Shown piece by piece: positions 2,806-32,706 of a stretch of 33,264 nt of DNA (its first letter is position 1; every line of letters begins with the position of its first letter). A model generated the notes under the pieces. The model was not told where the DNA came from. It did no database searches and was given only the letters and a program-made list of their open reading frames with translations. The DNA lies in NCBI GenBank assembly GCA_028707255.1, contig JAQTUQ010000016.1, positions 1 through 33,264 of the forward strand, written 5' to 3'. The DNA is from Dehalococcoidales bacterium. Lineage in GTDB: Bacteria > Chloroflexota > Dehalococcoidia > Dehalococcoidales > UBA5627. Both the position numbers and the translations under genes were made by a program.

Positions 2806-4117
2806 AACTATGCTTATAAAAAACGGGCGCATTATTGACCCGTCGCAGGACATGGATATGACGGGTGATTTACTGATAACCGACGGCAGGATAAAAGAAG
2901 TCGCAGCGAGTATTAAAGAAATTCCGGCGGATTGTAATGTACTGGATGCGAAAGGAATGATAGTCTGCCCCGGATTTATAGATTTTCACTGCCACCTGAG
3001 ACAACCGGGCTTTGAAGAAAAAGAAACCATTGCAACCGGAAGTAAAGCCGCCGCCAAAGGCGGTTTTACCACAATCTGCTGCATGCCGAATACAAACCCG
3101 GCTCTCGATAATAGAGCAACCATTGATTATATCAAGTCTGCATCTGCCACCGATGCCTGCATCCGCGTTCTGCCGATTGGCTGCATAACCAAAGGCCGGG
3201 CGGGCAAAGAACTGGCCGATATGGGAGAACTGGCTGAAGCTGGAGTGGTTGCCGTAAGCGATGACGGCTCAACAATTGCCGATTCGCGTATAATGAAACA
3301 GGCTCTCGAATACAGTACGATATTCGGTTTGCTTGTAGGCGACCACTGCGAGGATGTTATGCTGTCCAATGGGGGGCAGATAAATGAAGGTATAATCGCC
3401 ACCAGGCTGGGTTTGAGGGGAATTCCTAATGCGGCCGAAGAGAATATTATCGCCAGGGATATTGCACTGGCAAAACTTACAGGAGCCCGGATTCATATCT
3501 GTCATATCAGTACACATGGTTCGGTAGAACTCGTTCGCAATGCCAAGAAAGATGGCGTTAAAATTACCGTCGAGGTCACTCCCCATCATCTTACTATGGA
3601 TGAGGGAATGGTACTCGGTTTCGACACCAATGCTAAGGTCAATCCTCCCCTGCGCACTCGAAAAGATATTGCGGCGCTCATTGCCGGTTTGAAAGACGAC
3701 ACCATAGACATTATTGCTACCGACCACGCCCCGCATACCGATAACGAAAAACTGTGCGAATTTGCTATTGCCCCCTTCGGTATAAGCGGTTTTGAAACTG
3801 CGCTTGGTAGCCTGATGAAACTGGTTCATAACGGTGATATCGAAATCGGTCTCCTGCTATCCAAGCTGACCGCCGCACCGGCAAAAATCATCGGCAGCAA
3901 ATTCGGCAAACTGGGAACACTCGAACAGGGAGCTATGGCGGATATAACTATATTCGACCCCGATGCGGAATGGAAAGTGAATGTTGAAGAGTTTTATTCC
4001 AGAGGCAGAAACACCCCCCTTAACGGCGAAAAGTTAAAGGGTAAAGTTATGGCAACTATATTTAACGGAAAAGTGGTTTATAAAGACAATTCGGTAAAAC
4101 TAGGAGTTAAAGCGTGA
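2798..4117 (+). CDS. pyrC: Dihydroorotase, class I
   Basis: A zinc amidohydrolase that closes carbamoyl aspartate to dihydroorotate. The metal-binding [10 protein letters not shown] motif is at residues 62-71, followed by [12 protein letters not shown]. Further ligands are in [14 protein letters not shown] and the C-terminal IATDHAPHT. The length (439) and the PGF-DFHCHLR-P pattern fit the class I (PyrC/AllB-like) enzymes rather than the E. coli type. ATG 2798 lies inside the end of pyrB, and the 3' end overlaps carA by 4 nt, so translational coupling is likely. Operon context excludes allantoinase or hydantoinase as the main role. Confidence 0.95.
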
Positions 4118-5205
4118 ACAAGAAAGCTATTCTGGTACTTGAAGATGGGTCGATTTTTGAGGGATATTCTTTCGGAGCCGATATAGAAACCTATGGAGAA
4201 GTGGTATTCAATACCAGCATGGCCGGTTACCAGGAAATACTGACCGACCCATCTTACGCCGGGCAAATCGTAGTGCCGACATATCCAATGATAGGTAATT
4301 ACGGCATCAATGATAACGACTTTGAATCCAAACGGGTACAGGTGAGCGGATTCGTCGTCAGGGAAGAATGCGAGGAACCCAGTCACTATCAGAGCAGTAT
4401 GACTATTCACGAGTATCTGGTCAATAATAGCATTGCCGGAATACACGGTGTCGATACGCGGGCAATCACGCGGCTTTTACGTTCATGCGGTGTCATGCGC
4501 GGGATTATAACCTGCGAAAAAACACCGCAACAGGCTTTAGCCGAAATAAAGTTAAAGCCGGATTACAGCAACACCGATTTTGTACACAAAGTTTCTTCAC
4601 CTGATACTTACGATTGGCCGGCTCAAAATTGTACCGAAAGTGAGTATAACATTGCTGTTTTAGATTGCGGTTTGAAATTCAGCATACTTAGAAAGTTAAG
4701 TGCGCTAAATTGCAGCTTAAAAGTATTTCCATGTGATACACCGGCAAGTGAGATACTGAAAATTAATCCGGATGGGATTTTGCTGTCACCCGGCCCGGGA
4801 AATCCCGAACTTTTAGATTATATTGTCGATAACGTAAAAATACTGGCTGAAAAAAAGCCGATTATGGGAATATGCCTCGGTAACCAGTTGATAGGCCGGG
4901 CTTTTGGAGCAAAAACTTTCAAACTGAAATTCGGGCACCGTGGCGGCAATCATCCGGTTAAAGAACTCAGTAATGGCAGAATTCATATTACTGCACAGAA
5001 CCATGGGTTTGCGTTAGACCCCGATACGGTTTCCAACGGGCTTGAAATAAGCTTCATTAATCTTAATGATGGCACTGTCGAAGGGATAAGGCACAAGGAA
5101 CTGCCGATTTTCGGTATCCAATATCACTCCGAGGCGTCTCCCGGCCCGCTCGATACCACCTACCTGTTTAAACAATTTTTAGGAATGATTGATAAGAGCA
5201 GATAG
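4114..5205 (+). CDS. carA: Carbamoyl-phosphate synthase small (glutaminase) subunit
   Basis: CarA hydrolyses glutamine and channels ammonia to CarB. It starts with GTG at 4114, sharing GTGA with the pyrC stop; TAGGAG (4101-4106) is correctly spaced. The N-terminal CPSase small domain (about 1-150, with FNTSMAGYQEILTDPSYAGQ) is followed by a class I amidotransferase. Its catalytic triad is intact: Cys254 in GICLGNQ, His338 and Glu340 in GIQYHSEAS. The length of 363 is normal. Its partner carB is not adjacent: about 1.2 kb of unrelated DNA separates them. Confidence 0.96.
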   Translation: MNKKAILVLEDGSIFEGYSFGADIETYGEVVFNTSMAGYQEILTDPSYAGQIVVPTYPMIGNYGINDNDFESKRVQVSGFVVREECEEPSHYQSSMTIHEYLVNNSIAGIHGVDTRAITRLLRSCGVMRGIITCEKTPQQALAEIKLKPDYSNTDFVHKVSSPDTYDWPAQNCTESEYNIAVLDCGLKFSILRKLSALNCSLKVFPCDTPASEILKINPDGILLSPGPGNPELLDYIVDNVKILAEKKPIMGICLGNQLIGRAFGAKTFKLKFGHRGGNHPVKELSNGRIHITAQNHGFALDPDTVSNGLEISFINLNDGTVEGIRHKELPIFGIQYHSEASPGPLDTTYLFKQFLGMIDKSR

Positions 5206-5214
5206 GAAGGTTAT

Positions 5215-5706
5215 ATGCTATCTTACAAAGAAAAACTTAAAAAGCCTTCAAGACAGTTAAGACACGATATGACCGATACTGAAAGGTATCTATGGTCGAA
5301 GCTGAAAATGAGACAGCTTAACGGATATCAGTTCTACAGACAGAAGCCTATAGGCAATTATATAGTCGATTTTTATTGTCCCGCGTTAAAGTTAGTGATA
5401 GAAGTCGATGGCAGTCAGCATTTTTATAATGACGGATTGGAACATGACAAAGAAAGAGATGCATATATCAATAGCCTTGGATTAAAAGTTCTCAGATTCA
5501 CCAACGTCGAAGTGCTAAAGAATATGCAGGGAGTTTTCGACAAAATTATAGAGCATATGAATGAAATCCCCCTTGTTCCCCCTTTTCCAAAGTGGGAGAA
5601 TAAGTCTTCTTTTAAAGGGAAACAGATTACTAAAATAAACCGCAAAGAGAAGTTAATTAATCGCGGGGATAATTCTTTAATAAATAAAGAGAAAGGCAAA
5701 CCATAA
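5215..5706 (+). CDS. DUF559 / Vsr-like endonuclease-domain protein with a repeat-derived C-terminus
   Basis: Residues 1-120 match the DUF559 family, a relative of the Vsr mismatch endonuclease with a PD-(D/E)xK type fold. The signature is seen as Asp52 (IVDFYCP), Glu63-Val-Asp65 (VIEVDGSQH) and a basic RDAYINSLGLKVLRFTN segment. Target and role of the family are not firmly known. The last 40 residues do not look like the domain. They read IPLVPPFPKWENK, a direct translation of a palindromic repeat (5564-5600), followed by a lysine/asparagine-rich tail. The gene sits 9 nt after carA with a GGAAGG ribosome binding site, so it would be co-transcribed with the pyr operon. It has no evident link to pyrimidine synthesis and looks like an insertion. 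Confidence 0.85.
   Translation: MLSYKEKLKKPSRQLRHDMTDTERYLWSKLKMRQLNGYQFYRQKPIGNYIVDFYCPALKLVIEVDGSQHFYNDGLEHDKERDAYINSLGLKVLRFTNVEVLKNMQGVFDKIIEHMNEIPLVPPFPKWENKSSFKGKQITKINRKEKLINRGDNSLINKEKGKP
5564..5600 (+). repeat. Palindromic repeat copy R1, inside the DUF559 reading frame
   Basis: This 37-nt unit begins AAATCCCCCTTG and contains the imperfect palindrome CCCCCTTTTCCAAAGTGGG. Compared with the reverse complement of R2 (5747-5783) it matches at most positions: AAATCCC, CT, T-C-CCCTTT and CAAAG line up without gaps. It has been read in frame as EIPLVPPFPKWE. Repeats of this look are scattered through many bacterial genomes; that statement is from general knowledge. Confidence 0.75.
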
Positions 5707-5746
5707 TGATTATTCTCTCATTTGTCCACAGGGAGACAATATAGCC

Positions 5747-5783
5747 ATTTCTCCCTTTGACAAAGGGAGATTGAGAGGGATTT
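5747..5783 (-). repeat. Palindromic repeat copy R2, inverted relative to R1
   Basis: It contains a perfect 10-bp inverted repeat, TCTCCCTTTG (5750-5759) and CAAAGGGAGA (5761-5770), around one central A, followed by a GAGAGGGATTT tail. The reverse complement aligns over 37 nt with R1. A third, decayed version may lie at 5714-5736 (TCTCTCATTTG then ACAGGGAGA). Together these fill the gap between the DUF559 gene and the next ORF. Confidence 0.75.
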
Positions 5784-5798
5784 AACTGAGGTAACTAG

Positions 5799-6179
5799 AT
5801 GAATAAGAATTCTTGTGAATGCTTAGAGGATGAAAAGAATTTTTGTGAACACTTAAAGGATGGAAAGTGTAAAGTATTAAAAAATATTAAATGCCTTCCT
5901 TATGAGAGAAAGAGAAATAAAAGCTGTTCATTTGCTGACAATTATAATAGGTTACAAGAAAATGGCAATTTATATGCAGATAAAATTAATATAAAAGTAA
6001 TGGATCAAGCGCAAATAAACTGGCATAAATTTATGCAGGATGAGATGCCCAACGGTCGTAAAAATATGACAGCAAAGCCATTAGAAGATGCAATAAGAAA
6101 AGAAATTAGTAATGAATTAACAAAATATAATGTAAATGTCACACACAAACCAGTAAAAATTCCCATACAAAGAATATAA
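5799..6179 (+). CDS. Hypothetical cysteine-rich protein, probably truncated by a frameshift
   Basis: The reading frame is 126 codons. The N-terminal 50 residues hold eight cysteines (including CECLED, FCEHLKDGKC, CLPYERKRNKSC), which may bind metal. The remainder is charged and helical-looking, with QINWHKFMQDEMPNG. I recognise no family. Base composition is visibly richer in A+T than the pyr genes, and the Lys/Asn codons are almost all AAA/AAT, which suggests a foreign origin. Only a weak ribosome binding site (GAGG) precedes ATG 5799. An A5 run at 6155-6159, close to the end, marks a likely frameshift: the next frame continues open for another 62 codons (see the following entry). Confidence 0.6.
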   Translation: MNKNSCECLEDEKNFCEHLKDGKCKVLKNIKCLPYERKRNKSCSFADNYNRLQENGNLYADKINIKVMDQAQINWHKFMQDEMPNGRKNMTAKPLEDAIRKEISNELTKYNVNVTHKPVKIPIQRI

Positions 6180-6345
6180 AGAGGATAAGAATTATAAAAT
6201 ATTTATGGTATGTTTAAATCCTATCGAAGGTTATAAAGACGCTATCGAAATTTTTAAATCTTATCTTGATGGCGTTTACTCTTTATCAGGAGAGCCTTAC
6301 ATAGATGAATTGTTTAAGGAATTATTTAAAATATACAGTAAATAA
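6157..6345 (+). pseudogene. Out-of-frame continuation of the 5799 gene
   Basis: Frame +1 is open from 6157 to the TAA at 6343-6345. It reads KFPYKEYKEDKNYKIF, then MVCLNPIEGYKDAIEIF, and ends ELFKELFKIYSK. Removing one A from the A5 run at 6155-6159 joins it to the upstream frame and gives one protein of about 182 residues. The composition and style (Lys, Tyr, Glu, Ile rich) match the upstream part. An alternative is a separate 46-residue protein starting at ATG 6205, but no ribosome binding site supports that. Confidence 0.5.
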
Positions 6346-6411
6346 ACAAATTAGTATATTAGATTATATATAAAAGCTTGATATAATTATTGACTCTTGA
6401 AAGGGAAATAA

Positions 6412-9400
6412 ATGACTGAAAAACCTAAAAAAGTATTGATTATCGGTTCGGGGCCCATTGTTATCGGTCAGGCGGCGGAGTTCGATTATGCCGGAACTCA
6501 GGCATGCAAAGCCATGCGTGAAGAGGGCATTATCTCCGTGCTTGTCAACTCTAATCCGGCTACCATTATGACCGACGAAGATATTGCCGATATCGTATAT
6601 ATAGAACCGATTACGGTTGAGGTCATTACACGCATCATAGAGAAAGAACGGCCTGACGGACTGCTGCCTACCCTCGGAGGACAAACCGGGCTGAATATGG
6701 CTGTAGACCTGGACGACGCCGGAGTGCTTGAAAAGTATAAAGTCAAGTCACTGGGAACGCCCATTGAAGCCATCCGCAAGGGAGAAGACAGGGAGCTTTT
6801 CAAGGAAATGCTGGAGGAAATCGGCGAACCGGTTCCACCTAGTGCTACGGTAAAAAATCTTAAGGAAGCCCATGAAGTGGCACAGAGATTAGGATTACCG
6901 CTTGTTATCCGTCCCGCTTATACCCTGGGGGGTACCGGAGGCGGATTTGCCAATACATGGGAACAGTTCGATGAGGTAGTTTCCATCGGACTGAACGCCA
7001 GCCCGATTCACCAGGTACTTCTGGAAATATCACTGGTCGGCTGGAAAGAAATCGAGTACGAGGTGATGCGTGATGGCGCCAACAACTGTATAACCATCTG
7101 CAATATGGAAAATATCGACCCGATGGGGGTACATACCGGCGACAGCATCGTTGTCGCACCCACCCAGACGCTTACCAATAAAGAATGCCAGATGTTGAGA
7201 ACCGCCAGTCTTAAAATTATCCGCGCTCTGGGTGTGGAAGGCGGATGCAACGTGCAATTTGCTCTCGACCCCAAGAGCGACAAGTATTTTGTAATTGAAG
7301 TAAACCCGCGTGTCAGCCGCAGTTCGGCGCTTGCCAGTAAAGCTACCGGCTACCCGATTGCCCGCGTTGCTTCCAAAATCGCCATAGGCAAGAGGCTGGA
7401 TGAAATTCCCAACGCCGTTACCGGTAAAACGATGGCTTCCTTCGAGCCGTCTATCGACTATATTGTAGCTAAAATCCCACGCTGGCCGTTCGATAAGTTC
7501 GAGTCCGGAGACAGGATTATCGGAACACAAATGAAAGCCACCGGAGAAGTTATGGCAATCGACAGGTGTTTCGAAGCTGCCATACAGAAAGCGGTGCGCT
7601 CTCTTGAATTCGGCAAGAGGTCTCTTTTATGGGAAGACCCCAAATGGGAACTGACCGATGATATAAAATCATATCCCCTTTATCCCAACGACCTCAGGTT
7701 ATGGGCGGTTATGGCTGCGCTTCGCCGCGGAAAATCGGTCGAAGAAATTGCCGAACACACAGGATACGACCTGTGGTTCTTAAAAAAGTTCAGGAATATT
7801 ATCGACATGGAAAAGAGATTGCTATCAGAACAGCTGACTCCGGAGCTTTTATGGCAGGCAAAACGCTATGGATTCTCGGATAGCCAGATCGGAACACTGG
7901 CAGACAGGTTAACGGCACAGGTCAGGCAGTTAAGAAATGATTGGGGTTTACGCCCTGTTTATAAGATGGTAGATACCTGCGCCGCTGAATTCGATGCCGC
8001 TACCCCCTATTTCTACAGCAGTTATGAAAAAGAGAACGAAGCTGTAACCGAACACCGTAGCAAGGCTATTGTTATCGGCAGCGGCCCCATCCGCATCGGT
8101 CAGGGTATTGAATTCGATTATTGCAGCGTACACTCTGCGTGGGCGCTGCAAAAGGCCGGTTATCAGAGCATCATGGTTAATTCCAACCCGGAAACGGTTT
8201 CCACCGATTTCGATACCAGCGACCGGCTGTATTTCGAAGCCCTCGATGAAGAAAGTATGCGGGATATTATCGAGAATGAAGGGTATTTTATCAATGATGA
8301 TAATCCCGACATGACCGAACCTCCCTGTATCGTCCAGTTCGGCGGACAAACAGCTATCAATCTGGCTACGCCGCTAACGCGGGCCGGATTGCCGCTTATC
8401 GGCTCCAGTTCCGAGACTATCGACCTCGCCGAAGACAGGAAGAGATTCGAGCATTTCTTAAGCGAACTGGGGATTCCGCAGGCGCCCGGCGCCGCGGTAA
8501 CGACGGTAGAAGAAGCGATAAAAGTAGCCGAGCTTATCGGATATCCTGTGCTGGTGCGTCCCAGCTATGTTCTGGGCGGCAGAGCTATGGAAATCGTGCA
8601 TAACGTTAATGAGCTCGCCCGTTATGTAAAACTGGCGGCAGACCTGGATACCGGCCACCCGGTACTTATCGATAAATACCTACTGGGTAAAGAGGTGGAA
8701 ATAGATGCTATCGGTGACGGGGAAAGTGTTTTTATTCCAGGTATCATGGAACACATCGAGAGGGCCGGTGTACACAGCGGCGATTCGATGGCTATTTATC
8801 CGGCAATAAAGCTTACTAAAACAGAAATAGATACCATTGTAGATTATTCGGTTCGCATCGGTCTCGCTCTTAATATAAAAGGGCTGATGAATATCCAGTT
8901 CGATGTGGTCAGGGACAGCTCGGGAAAATCGAAGATATACGTACTCGAAGTAAACCCGCGCGCCAGCCGCACCGTACCCTTTATCTCAAAAGTTACCGGC
9001 GTATCTATAGTAGATATTGCCACCAGGGTTATGCTCGGGCAAAGCCTCAAGGAGCAGGGTTTCCAGACAGGTTTATACCCCAGCAGGAACCTGATCGCCA
9101 TCAAAGCGCCGGTATTTTCGATGTCGAAACTGCTGGGTGTAGATACATACCTTGGACCCGAGATGAAATCGACGGGAGAAGTTATGGGTATCGATACTAC
9201 CTTTAACGGCGCGCTGGTTAAAGCTCTATTGGCTGCAGGTTTGATGCTGCCCGAAAAAGGCAGCATGCTGTTCAGTATCGCAGACCGCGATAAAGCAGAA
9301 GCTCTTCCCATAATAAGGAATTTTTATGAAGCCGGATTCAAGCTCTATGCCACCGAAGGCACATCGGAACTTTTACGCAACGCCGGAATTCCGGTATCCA

Positions 9401-9657
9401 TGATAACCAAGAAACTGGATGAAGGGCATCCCAATGTAATAGATATAATCCATGACGGAACGGTAAACGGTGTGATTAATACCATAACCGGCGGCAGGGT
9501 TTCACTGAGAGACGGCTTCCATATCCGCAGGGCTGCTGCCGAAAGACGCATCCCCTGCTTTACTTCGCTGGATACTGCCAGGGCGGTTGCCGAAGTACTT
9601 GCAAACGGTCAATATAATTATAATGTATTGTCTATGCCCGAATACCGTAACCGTTAA
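6412..9657 (+). CDS. carB: Carbamoyl-phosphate synthase large subunit
   Basis: CarB makes carbamoyl phosphate from bicarbonate, ammonia and two ATP. The 1081 residues show the standard duplicated layout. The first half starts [20 protein letters not shown] and carries an ATP-grasp domain with [13 protein letters not shown] and [14 protein letters not shown]. The second half begins near residue 550 with [20 protein letters not shown] and has [14 protein letters not shown] and [14 protein letters not shown]. The C-terminal MGS-like allosteric domain starts near 940 ([14 protein letters not shown]). ATG 6412 has GAAAGGGA upstream. A TATAAT at 6382-6387 without a good -35 box could be a weak own promoter, which would restore expression behind the insert. 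Confidence 0.97.
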
Positions 9658-30852: not shown

Positions 30853-32706
30853 TTAGCCGAGCATTGTCAATCCCAAACTTATTGTTACCGCCGCAACTAT
30901 CGAACCAAGCACCGAAAGAATAATAATAGTAGTGAGTTCTCTTGATGAAAGAACTTTCTTTACCAGAGTCCTCAAAAGGGCTTCCTGTGCCTTCTGCAAA
31001 GCCTCTTCGGCTTTAAGGCTGGCTTGATTCGCTATTTCTTCGGCAGAAGCTTTAACATCAGCTGCTGCTCTTTCGGCACGTGCGCTGGCAGCCAGGGCAG
31101 CGCTTTTGGCGTCTTCAGCCGCCCTCCTTGCTTCTTCCGCCGATTTTTTTGCTTCTTCGATTTTTGCCGTTGCTTCCTTACTGGTAGCTTTCATGGCTGC
31201 TTCGGCAGCTTCCTTGGCATCCAGCGCCGATTTTGATGCTCCGGCAAGAGCTGTTTCAGCAGCTTTTTTAGCTTCTTCGGCCGCTTTTTTAGCTTCGAGC
31301 ATCCTGGCCTGTGCTTCGTCCCCGGTAGCTTTCATGGTTTCTTCTGCGGCAGCTTGTGCATTAAGGGATGCCTGATTGGCTAATGCTGCCGCCCTTTCAG
31401 CGGCTTTAGCCGATTCTTCAGCCATAATAACCAACTTATGCAAGGCTTTTGCTGCTGCATCTACGGCATCATCGCCGGCAAGGTCTGTCTGTTCAGCTTT
31501 CACCCGTGTCTTCTCTGCGGCTTTAAAGGCTGTCAATGCCGCCTGTTTAGCTTCCTGTCCGGCCTTTTCAGTGCTGTCGGCAAGCGGACCGGTAACTTTA
31601 GTTGCCGCGGCAAGAGCTTCCTCTCCTGCTATATCGGCAAGTTCGGCTTTTCTTTCGATTTCTTCAGCTAACCTGAAACCTGCTGCCGCCATTCTCTTGG
31701 CTTTCTTTCCGGACTCATCGGTTTTAGAGGCTGTTTCAGCAGATAATTTTTTCTCCAACTCTGCCTTTGCAGTTTTAACGTTATTGACACTGTCATCAAG
31801 TTGTTTGTTAAGATTGTTAGATTGCGCAACAGCTGAATCCAGCGATTCCTTTGCCATAATAGCCGCTGCTTCAGCCCTTGCCGCAGCTTCCTGCGCTCTC
31901 TTCAATGCTTCGGCAGCCGCTTCTCTGGCTGCCAGATCCAATTCTTCTGCTTTTCTGACGGCCTCTTCGGCCGCATACCTGGCATTTCTGGCGGTTTCTT
32001 CTGCCTTAGCAGCCGCATCTTCCGCTCTGGCTACGGCCTCTGCCGCCGCTTGAATCGCGGATTCCGATGCTTCTCTGGCTGCCGCAGCCGCCGCTTCGGC
32101 TCTTTTAACTGCCTCGTCGGACTTTTTGGCGGCATCAGCGGCTGCCAGTGCAGCCGCTCTCGCGGCTTCTTCCTGCGCTTCTTTAGCAAGTCTGGCGGCT
32201 TCTTCGGCCTTTCTCGATGCTTCTAAAGCGGCTTCCCGAGCTGCTTTAACAGCCGCCGCAGCGTCCAATTTAGCTGCTGCCCCAGCTTCCTCAGCCCTCT
32301 TAACAGCTTCACTGGCCGCTAACTTTGCCGATTGAGCGGCATCCCTGGAACTTTTATCTGCTTCCTCCGATTTCGCAGCTGCTTTCTCGGCTGCGGTTAT
32401 AGCATCTTTAGCAGTTTTTTCTGCTTTCGCAGCCGCTTCTGCCGCTGCCCTGGTAGCATCGCCGGCAGCTTTCTCTCCAGCCTTACGAGCCTCTTCTGCT
32501 CTCTTCCCGGCTTCCAGCGAAGCCTGAGTGGCGGCTGTAGCTGCTTCTCTCGAAGAACGCGCGGCTTCTTCAGCCCTCTTTGCCGCGGCTGCTGCAGCGC
32601 GAATATTGTCATCCATTTCATCCAATATTTGCGGCAGCGGCTTCTGCATAATTTTAGGAGTATCGACTTGTTCGGTTAGCCTTTTTTCATTTTCTTTACT
32701 TACCAC
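30853..32706 (-). CDS. Alanine-rich coiled-coil protein with C-terminal membrane anchor
   Basis: A 617-residue protein starting at GTG 32706 with AAGGAG upstream. After about 40 N-terminal residues (EQVDTPKIMQKPLPQILDEMDD) nearly all of the chain to residue 580 is Ala/Lys/Glu/Arg-rich helix. Units such as KRAEEA and AAREAA recur at 18, 25 and 29 residues, distances made of 7- and 11-residue steps, which points to a mixed heptad/hendecad coiled coil. A less regular hinge lies near 290-330 (SNNLNKQLDDSVNNVKTAK). The C-terminus has one hydrophobic helix, about 593-616 (IIILSVLGSIVAAVTISLGL), so it is probably tail-anchored with the coil in the cytoplasm. No signal peptide. It could be a division, chromosome or envelope scaffold, or a LEA-3-like stress protein; its own terminator separates it from ftsA. 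Function unknown. Confidence 0.85.
   Translation of the reverse strand: MVSKENEKRLTEQVDTPKIMQKPLPQILDEMDDNIRAAAAAAKRAEEAARSSREAATAATQASLEAGKRAEEARKAGEKAAGDATRAAAEAAAKAEKTAKDAITAAEKAAAKSEEADKSSRDAAQSAKLAASEAVKRAEEAGAAAKLDAAAAVKAAREAALEASRKAEEAARLAKEAQEEAARAAALAAADAAKKSDEAVKRAEAAAAAAREASESAIQAAAEAVARAEDAAAKAEETARNARYAAEEAVRKAEELDLAAREAAAEALKRAQEAAARAEAAAIMAKESLDSAVAQSNNLNKQLDDSVNNVKTAKAELEKKLSAETASKTDESGKKAKRMAAAGFRLAEEIERKAELADIAGEEALAAATKVTGPLADSTEKAGQEAKQAALTAFKAAEKTRVKAEQTDLAGDDAVDAAAKALHKLVIMAEESAKAAERAAALANQASLNAQAAAEETMKATGDEAQARMLEAKKAAEEAKKAAETALAGASKSALDAKEAAEAAMKATSKEATAKIEEAKKSAEEARRAAEDAKSAALAASARAERAAADVKASAEEIANQASLKAEEALQKAQEALLRTLVKKVLSSRELTTIIILSVLGSIVAAVTISLGLTMLG

What the first reader, a model, noticed from the sequence alone, without database searches (positions are those of the whole stretch)
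5564..5783. DUF559 nuclease gene carrying inverted palindromic repeats: a possible nuclease-repeat mobile unit
Two 37-bp repeats (R1 5564-5600, R2 5747-5783) face each other around the 3' end of the DUF559 gene. Each has an internal palindrome, R2's being perfect (10-bp arms), and a third decayed copy may lie between them. R1 is translated as the protein tail. This recalls REP sequences and their RAYT transposases, but with a Vsr-like nuclease instead. My recollection is that DUF559 proteins in other genomes often end in similar PPFxKG-like translated repeats. If the link is general, DUF559 may cut or spread these repeats, which would be a new class of REP-like system.
Basis: partly seen in the sequence, partly recalled or inferred. 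Interest (0 to 1): 0.72.

Follow-up and report, generated by a model that had tools for sequence, protein, structure and literature searches.

The report
Nuclease gene with its own repeats
A small DNA-cutting enzyme gene (DUF559) is, here and across bacteria, flanked by hairpin repeats of the long-unexplained 'BoxC/triplex-motif' type that are also scattered through the same genomes, which suggests that this enzyme is the missing factor that moves those repeats, a partnership I found described nowhere.

Summary
R1-R2 (5564-5783) is one copy of a dispersed MITE/REPIN-like element (sharp AAATCCC...GGGATTT borders, about 25 hairpin copies in this 1.64-Mb genome) fused to the 3' end of the genome's only DUF559 gene. 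In 140 DUF559 loci from one class and more than 20 phyla, a pyrimidine/purine hairpin lies just upstream in 86% and just downstream in 81%, against 9-11% for other genes; the two flanks are inverted copies in 60% against 1%. Hairpin sequence co-varies with nuclease subtype, and genomes with DUF559 carry more dispersed copies. Gene-less pairs with the same two ends, and occupied versus empty sites (Deinococcus hpa operon; a Chloroflexota genus), indicate mobility. The repeats have the architecture of the known BoxC/PIT/'intrastrand triplex motif' (23 copies in E. coli K-12), whose 2015 authors found no mobility enzyme. E. coli ycjD is a DUF559 gene with such motifs beside it. I infer that DUF559, a Vsr/homing-endonuclease-like PD-(D/E)XK nuclease, cuts and spreads these repeats: a REP/RAYT-like system with an unrelated enzyme. 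The association is shown; cutting, and the enzyme's causal role, are not.

The parts
5215..5706 (+). DUF559 nuclease gene (163 aa), between carA (4114-5205) and carB (6412-9657)
   Evidence: Pfam PF04480 E 9e-37; dN/dS 0.08 against the UBA5627 ortholog
5233..5559 (+). DUF559 domain proper; the reading frame then runs on into the repeat
5564..5783 (.). alpha element: MITE/REPIN-like unit with inverted ends, borders AAATCCC...GGGATTT
   Evidence: aligned with 10 further copies in G000 and UBA5627; homology stops at these borders
5564..5600 (+). R1, DOWN-type arm: head 5564-5576 plus hairpin 5577-5597
   Evidence: 43/43 identical in UBA5627
5710..5736 (.). third, decayed hairpin copy between R1 and R2
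   Evidence: orthologous stretch in UBA5627
5747..5783 (-). R2, UP-type arm: hairpin 5750-5770 plus head 5771-5783
   Evidence: 36/36 identical in UBA5627; same type as the upstream arms of L082, L092, L094

Best explanation
The locus is a member of a widespread nuclease-repeat mobile system. A single-domain PD-(D/E)XK nuclease (DUF559; E. coli YcjD is one) is carried between, or next to, two inverted hairpin-plus-head repeats of the BoxC/intrastrand-triplex class. The nuclease recognises the hairpin ends of its own lineage and nicks or cuts there; the host's replication or recombination machinery then copies or transfers the end-bounded DNA. This yields the gene-bearing unit (about 430-560 bp) and many gene-less derivatives (UP+DOWN pairs of about 100-220 bp, and single hairpins). 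In this window an alpha-type derivative sits fused to the 3' end of the nuclease gene. Shown: the anatomy, its generality, co-variation, dispersed copies, gene-less derivatives, occupied versus empty sites. Inferred: that DUF559 is the mobilising enzyme, that it cuts the hairpins, and the copying step (homing-like or REP/IS200-like).
For: Fixed-position inverted hairpins on both sides of DUF559 genes: unbiased hairpin density 8.3 and 8.1 per kb in the two flanks against about 1.3 background; inverted-repeat score >=32 in 39/60 class loci against 2/1225 control windows and 46/79 multi-phylum loci against 2/1236; other genes in the same loci 7/671. Third strand (head) in 44-46% of flanks against 1%. 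Nuclease similarity tracks downstream-arm similarity between different taxa (rho 0.32 and 0.53, 0/500 permutations each). FYRQ-subtype genomes have 6-67 CCCCCTTT hairpins, at least 9 in 6/7 against 5/190 other genomes (Fisher 4e-8); CCCTCTCCC hairpins median 6 in DUF559+ against 0 in DUF559- genomes (6e-9). Mobility: same intergenic site holds the full unit in G073, a gene-less UP+DOWN pair in G103 with arms of the type of G103's own DUF559 unit, a different pair in G194, a lone hairpin in G172; Deinococcus units inserted at different points of the hpa operon and in the paa operon, while D. deserti, D. ficus and D. radiophilus have overlapping genes at the NW-56 site. Nearest solved structures: a DUF559 protein (3HRL) and a homing endonuclease of mobile-intron origin (3R3P). 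A DUF559 protein causes DNA damage in vivo in Caulobacter (PMC12907096).
Against: No biochemistry links DUF559 to these hairpins. Several genomes have many repeats and no detected DUF559 (G064 118, G088 94, G121 59, G010 58, G099 47). DUF559 itself is low copy (1-10 per genome). No target-site duplication. The head faces the gene in most lineages but away from it in Deinococcus, so the exact mobile unit is unclear. The window's gene and E. coli ycjD lack an upstream arm. Some insertions may be old and vertically inherited. The 80 named loci were selected for similarity to the window's protein.
Confidence: 0.72

Rival explanations
1. DUF559 is a passenger: an unknown enzyme acting in trans recognises the hairpin repeats and mobilises whatever lies between them; DUF559 travels as cargo (for example a restriction or repair gene).
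For: Some genomes hold many repeats without DUF559; DUF559 is low copy; weak similarity to restriction-type nucleases (PADLOC mREase_II 1e-8).
Against: DUF559 is the same single gene between such arms in very many phyla, its subtype co-varies with arm sequence, and no other gene was seen in the units examined.
Confidence: 0.13
2. Hotspot or expression structure: hairpin repeats act as terminators, regulators or fragile sites around an ordinary host/defence gene, without being its substrate.
For: Hairpins next to genes can terminate transcription; triplex motifs are linked to local instability in E. coli (PMC4666352).
Against: Other genes in the same loci show 9-11% against 81-86% and inverted pairs 1% against 60%; repeats are dispersed and form gene-less UP+DOWN pairs; the cited paper reports earlier work without promoter or terminator activity.
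Confidence: 0.1
3. Domesticated remnant: in this genome and in E. coli the nuclease has been retained for a host role (Vsr-like repair or restriction), as proposed for RAYTs, and no longer moves repeats; the arms are fossils or binding sites.
For: Single copy, strong purifying selection (dN/dS 0.08), conserved place after carA or sapF, missing upstream arm; Caulobacter VsrA depends on host methylation (PMC12907096).
Against: R1 and R2 remain 100% identical to the relative while the spacer decays, and G000 and UBA5627 have many related copies.
Confidence: 0.05

Closest known systems
BoxC / PIT / intrastrand triplex motif (TM), Holder et al. 2015, PMC4666352
   Same: Pyrimidine-pyrimidine-purine hairpin-plus-head units, dispersed, intergenic, often in inverted pairs of two types (A+B), in many phyla and linked to variable loci.
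   Different: No enzyme had been assigned (authors found no transposase or integrase nearby); here DUF559 is the partner, and UP and DOWN arms offer a reading of the A+B pairs.
REP/REPIN with RAYT (TnpA-REP) transposases
   Same: Low-copy nuclease gene flanked by inverted palindromic repeats with dispersed gene-less pairs; lineage-specific repeat-enzyme pairing; no target-site duplication seen.
   Different: RAYTs are HUH/Y1 enzymes; DUF559 is a PD-(D/E)XK fold. Heads are C-rich third strands, not GTAG tags.
DUF559 / YcjD / COG2852 predicted PD-(D/E)XK nucleases (Vsr-like; 3HRL)
   Same: The window protein is a clear member (E 9e-37).
   Different: Previously described as uncharacterised or restriction/repair-like; the repeat partnership is not mentioned in the papers found.
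EDxHD (Vsr-like) homing endonucleases, I-Bth0305I (3R3P)
   Same: Nearest structurally characterised non-DUF559 relative, a selfish DNA-cutting gene.
   Different: No intron or intein here; bounded by hairpin repeats; no homing site identified.
MITEs and classical insertion sequences
   Same: Inverted ends, gene-bearing and gene-less forms, insertion between genes of operons.
   Different: No DDE transposase, no target-site duplication, ends are hairpins with a third strand.

Membership tests
DUF559 (PF04480) | profile match above the curated cut-off | tested here: met
   125.7 bits against cut-off 20.6
BoxC/TM intrastrand triplex motif | three consecutive triplex-forming blocks (Y-Y-R or R-R-Y) with short loops | tested here: met
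   R1 AAATCCCCCTT-GT-TCCCCCTTT-TCC-AAAGTGGGA; third strand in 44-46% of DUF559 flanks against 1%
BoxC/TM intrastrand triplex motif | forms a triplex as an isolated strand | not testable with these tools
   shown for the E. coli motif by CD/NMR in PMC4666352; not for R1/R2
REP/RAYT system | HUH/Y1 tyrosine transposase next to the repeats | tested here: not met
   protein is DUF559, PD-(D/E)XK
REP/RAYT system | dispersed palindromes, often as inverted pairs, with a low-copy nuclease gene flanked by them | tested here: met
REP/RAYT system | GTAG or CGTC tag | tested here: not met
   heads are AAATCCC/CCCTCACCC-like
MITE | short non-coding element with inverted ends, sharp borders, multiple copies | tested here: met
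MITE | target-site duplication | tested here: not met
   none seen by inspection of 11 alpha copies
EDxHD homing endonuclease | Vsr-like fold related to I-Bth0305I | tested here: met
   3R3P matched at E 3e-6 by sequence profile
EDxHD homing endonuclease | cuts a defined site in an allele lacking the element and is copied there | not testable with these tools
   no experiment; empty sites exist
Vsr mismatch repair endonuclease | nicks at T:G mismatches | not testable with these tools
   fold relationship only

The most novel reading that the evidence does not exclude
DUF559 nucleases and BoxC/triplex-motif repeats form a bacteria-wide class of minimal mobile elements (about 430-560 bp autonomous, about 100-220 bp non-autonomous) in which one PD-(D/E)XK nuclease recognises hairpin/triplex ends; E. 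coli YcjD is the long-missing enzyme behind BoxC.
Probability: 0.6. Interest if true: 0.93.

Novelty: categorically new. Interest (0 to 1): 0.86.

Why it matters
BoxC/PIT/triplex repeats were seen in E. coli in the 1990s, occur in hundreds of bacteria and are tied to variable genome regions, yet no enzyme or function is known. Pairing them with DUF559 gives a concrete, testable partner in E. coli K-12 (ycjD), a possible function for a large uncharacterised nuclease family, and a second, independently evolved REP-like system built on an unrelated enzyme fold. It would also place a lone PD-(D/E)XK nuclease as the only protein of a mobile element, among the smallest known.

Tried and rejected
Window-only reading (a chance pair, or a terminator): rejected by dispersed copies and cross-phylum statistics. 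Enrichment around DUF559 within this genome: not testable, only one DUF559 gene. Rfam: no credible match. Target-site duplications: none seen. Upstream hairpin of E. coli ycjD as an arm: rejected, the same kind of hairpin follows sapF in strains without ycjD. E. coli ycjD presence/absence as an insertion event: rejected as a clean case, because the other strains carry the eefRABCD efflux operon there and a published analysis favours loss of eef (PMC12817139). S. meliloti pSymB empty site: no clean empty strain among the rows listed. UBA5627 as an empty-site panel: contig breaks and nested repeats limited it; one alpha site is conserved, one is rearranged. First alignment A1 was too diverse for a pattern scan. 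Structure prediction was not run because a close solved homolog exists (3HRL). No paper found links DUF559, COG2852 or ycjD to repeats, but the library holds open-access papers only.

Full report
1. The observation. R1 (5564-5600) and R2 (5747-5783) exist as described, inverted, around the 3' end of the only DUF559 gene of this genome. Within the window the hairpin pattern occurs only at these two places, against 0.02 expected from shuffles. A decayed third copy lies at 5716-5736. In the close relative UBA5627 (L112) carA, DUF559, R1, spacer, R2 and carB follow in the same order; R1 (43/43) and R2 (36/36) are identical although the gene has dS 0.77 and dN/dS 0.08 and the spacer has decayed. 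The window has an extra block of about 600 bp between R2 and carB that UBA5627 lacks.

2. What R1-R2 is. The genome holds about 25 hairpins of this kind and none of the reversed control pattern. They occur mostly as pairs of one 'UP' type and one 'DOWN' type. In the alpha layout heads point outward; 11 copies from this genome and UBA5627, including the window's R1-R2, align from AAATCCC to GGGATTT and then stop, in unrelated flanks, without target-site duplication. In the beta layout heads point inward, with 102-123 bp cores. So R1-R2 is one MITE/REPIN-like element, and its left end supplies the tail of the DUF559 protein.

3. The link to DUF559 is general. I fetched 60 DUF559 loci from the same class. 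Hairpins of any sequence peak just upstream and just downstream of the gene (8.3 and 8.1 per kb, background about 1.3). The two flanks are inverted copies of one another (score >=32) in 39/60 loci against 2/1225 same-spacing control windows. In 80 named loci from more than 20 phyla the result repeats: 46/79 against 2/1236, and CCCTTT-type hairpins are 60 times denser in the flanks than more than 1 kb away. Over all 140 loci, 86% have a pyrimidine/purine hairpin upstream and 81% downstream, against 9% and 11% for other genes in the same loci, and 60% against 1% (7/671) have inverted flanks. A third pyrimidine or purine block next to the hairpin, the triplex-motif signature, is present in 44-46% of flanks against 1%. 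Named plasmid examples include Deinococcus, Pseudanabaena, Sphingomonas and Sinorhizobium; in Neisseria and Azospirillum motifs lie nearby but not as an inverted pair, and Photobacterium shows none upstream.

4. Pairing of enzyme and repeat. Arm sequences differ between lineages but follow the nuclease: protein similarity correlates with downstream-arm similarity between different genomes or taxa (rho 0.32 and 0.53, none of 500 permutations each). All seven class genomes with an FYRQ-subtype DUF559 other than the window's own hold 6-67 dispersed CCCCCTTT hairpins, while most others have none (6/7 against 5/190 with at least 9, Fisher 4e-8). The CCCTCTCCC type has median 6 in DUF559-positive and 0 in DUF559-negative genomes (p 6e-9). 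Exceptions exist in both directions, and shared ancestry is not corrected for in these genome-level tests.

5. Mobility. In one Chloroflexota genus the same intergenic site carries the complete UP-DUF559-DOWN unit (G073), a gene-less UP+DOWN pair whose arms are of the type of the DUF559 unit elsewhere in that same genome (G103; compare L064), another such pair (G194), or a lone hairpin (G172); the arms have dozens of further copies in these genomes. In Deinococcus, DUF559 units lie on the opposite strand inside the hpa operon between oxidoreductase and hpaE (NW-56), between hpaB and oxidoreductase (D. proteolyticus, and a truncated gene in D. wulumuqiensis) and after a VOC-family gene (D. aetherius); D. 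deserti, D. ficus and D. radiophilus have the oxidoreductase and hpaE genes overlapping, without an insert. D. psychrotolerans has a unit with near-perfect inverted repeats of about 70 bp inside the paa operon.

6. What is known. The repeats match the BoxC/PIT/'intrastrand triplex motif' of Holder et al. 2015 (PMC4666352): 23 copies in E. coli K-12, five inverted pairs always of type A with type B, present in more than 260 bacteria, associated with variable loci; the authors state that they never found transposase or integrase remnants nearby. E. coli ycjD is a DUF559 gene. In strain KE47 a motif follows the gene and an inverted one lies before fabI; in K-12 the first is decayed. This is the same order as gene, R1, decayed copy, R2 in the window. 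YcjD was placed in the PD-(D/E)XK superfamily near Vsr in 2005 (PMC1189080); the closest solved structures are a DUF559 protein (3HRL) and the homing endonuclease of 3R3P (the identification of 3R3P as I-Bth0305I is my own knowledge). Caulobacter VsrA, a DUF559 protein, turns on the SOS response in cells lacking a cytosine methyltransferase (PMC12907096). I found no paper that connects DUF559 with these repeats.

7. How it most likely works. Inference: DUF559 binds the hairpin-head ends of its own type, most easily when single-stranded or extruded, and nicks or cuts there; repair or replication then copies or moves the bounded DNA. A homing-like route fits the protein's relatives; an IS200/REP-like single-strand route fits the hairpins and the lack of target-site duplication. 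Precedents for PD-(D/E)XK nucleases in DNA mobility are TnsA of Tn7 and the Rpn proteins (own knowledge). The varying orientation of heads and the missing upstream arm in the window and in E. coli leave the exact mobile unit open. The strongest alternative is that DUF559 is cargo of an unknown enzyme.

8. Verdict. The association and the anatomy are very well supported; mobility is well supported; the causal role of DUF559 is likely but untested.

Noticed in passing
window 5784-6395: Block of about 600 bp between R2 and carB absent from the UBA5627 ortholog; holds a 126-aa ORF (5799-6179) without Pfam or NCBIfam match above cut-off and a 30-bp tandem repeat at 5805-5864.
   Followed up: partly
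genomes G064, G088, G121, G010, G099: 47-118 CCCTCTCCC-type hairpins but no detected DUF559 gene: lost enzyme, missed gene, or another partner enzyme.
   Followed up: no
E. coli, sapF-fabI interval (L217-L221): ycjD with BoxC-type motifs in K-12-like strains; an efflux operon (eefRABCD in the literature) in ST131 and O157; strain NDM5 has lost the ycjD 3' end and the adjacent decayed motif.
   Followed up: partly
L196 (S. meliloti pSymB): 98-bp near-perfect inverted repeats around DUF559, each with two hairpins; parts of them occur in about 150 Rhizobiaceae plasmid records.
   Followed up: partly
L302, L308, L195 (Deinococcus): Additional small hairpins or inverted bases just outside the triplex-type arms (e.g. 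GGGCCAGCGTTGCTG / CAGCAACGCTGGCCC).
   Followed up: no
G201 (UBA5627) and G000: Other short dispersed repeats are nested around beta elements (hits of L253 19191-19381 at many places).
   Followed up: no
window 30853-32706: 617-aa alanine-rich, probably coiled-coil protein with a C-terminal hydrophobic segment.
   Followed up: no
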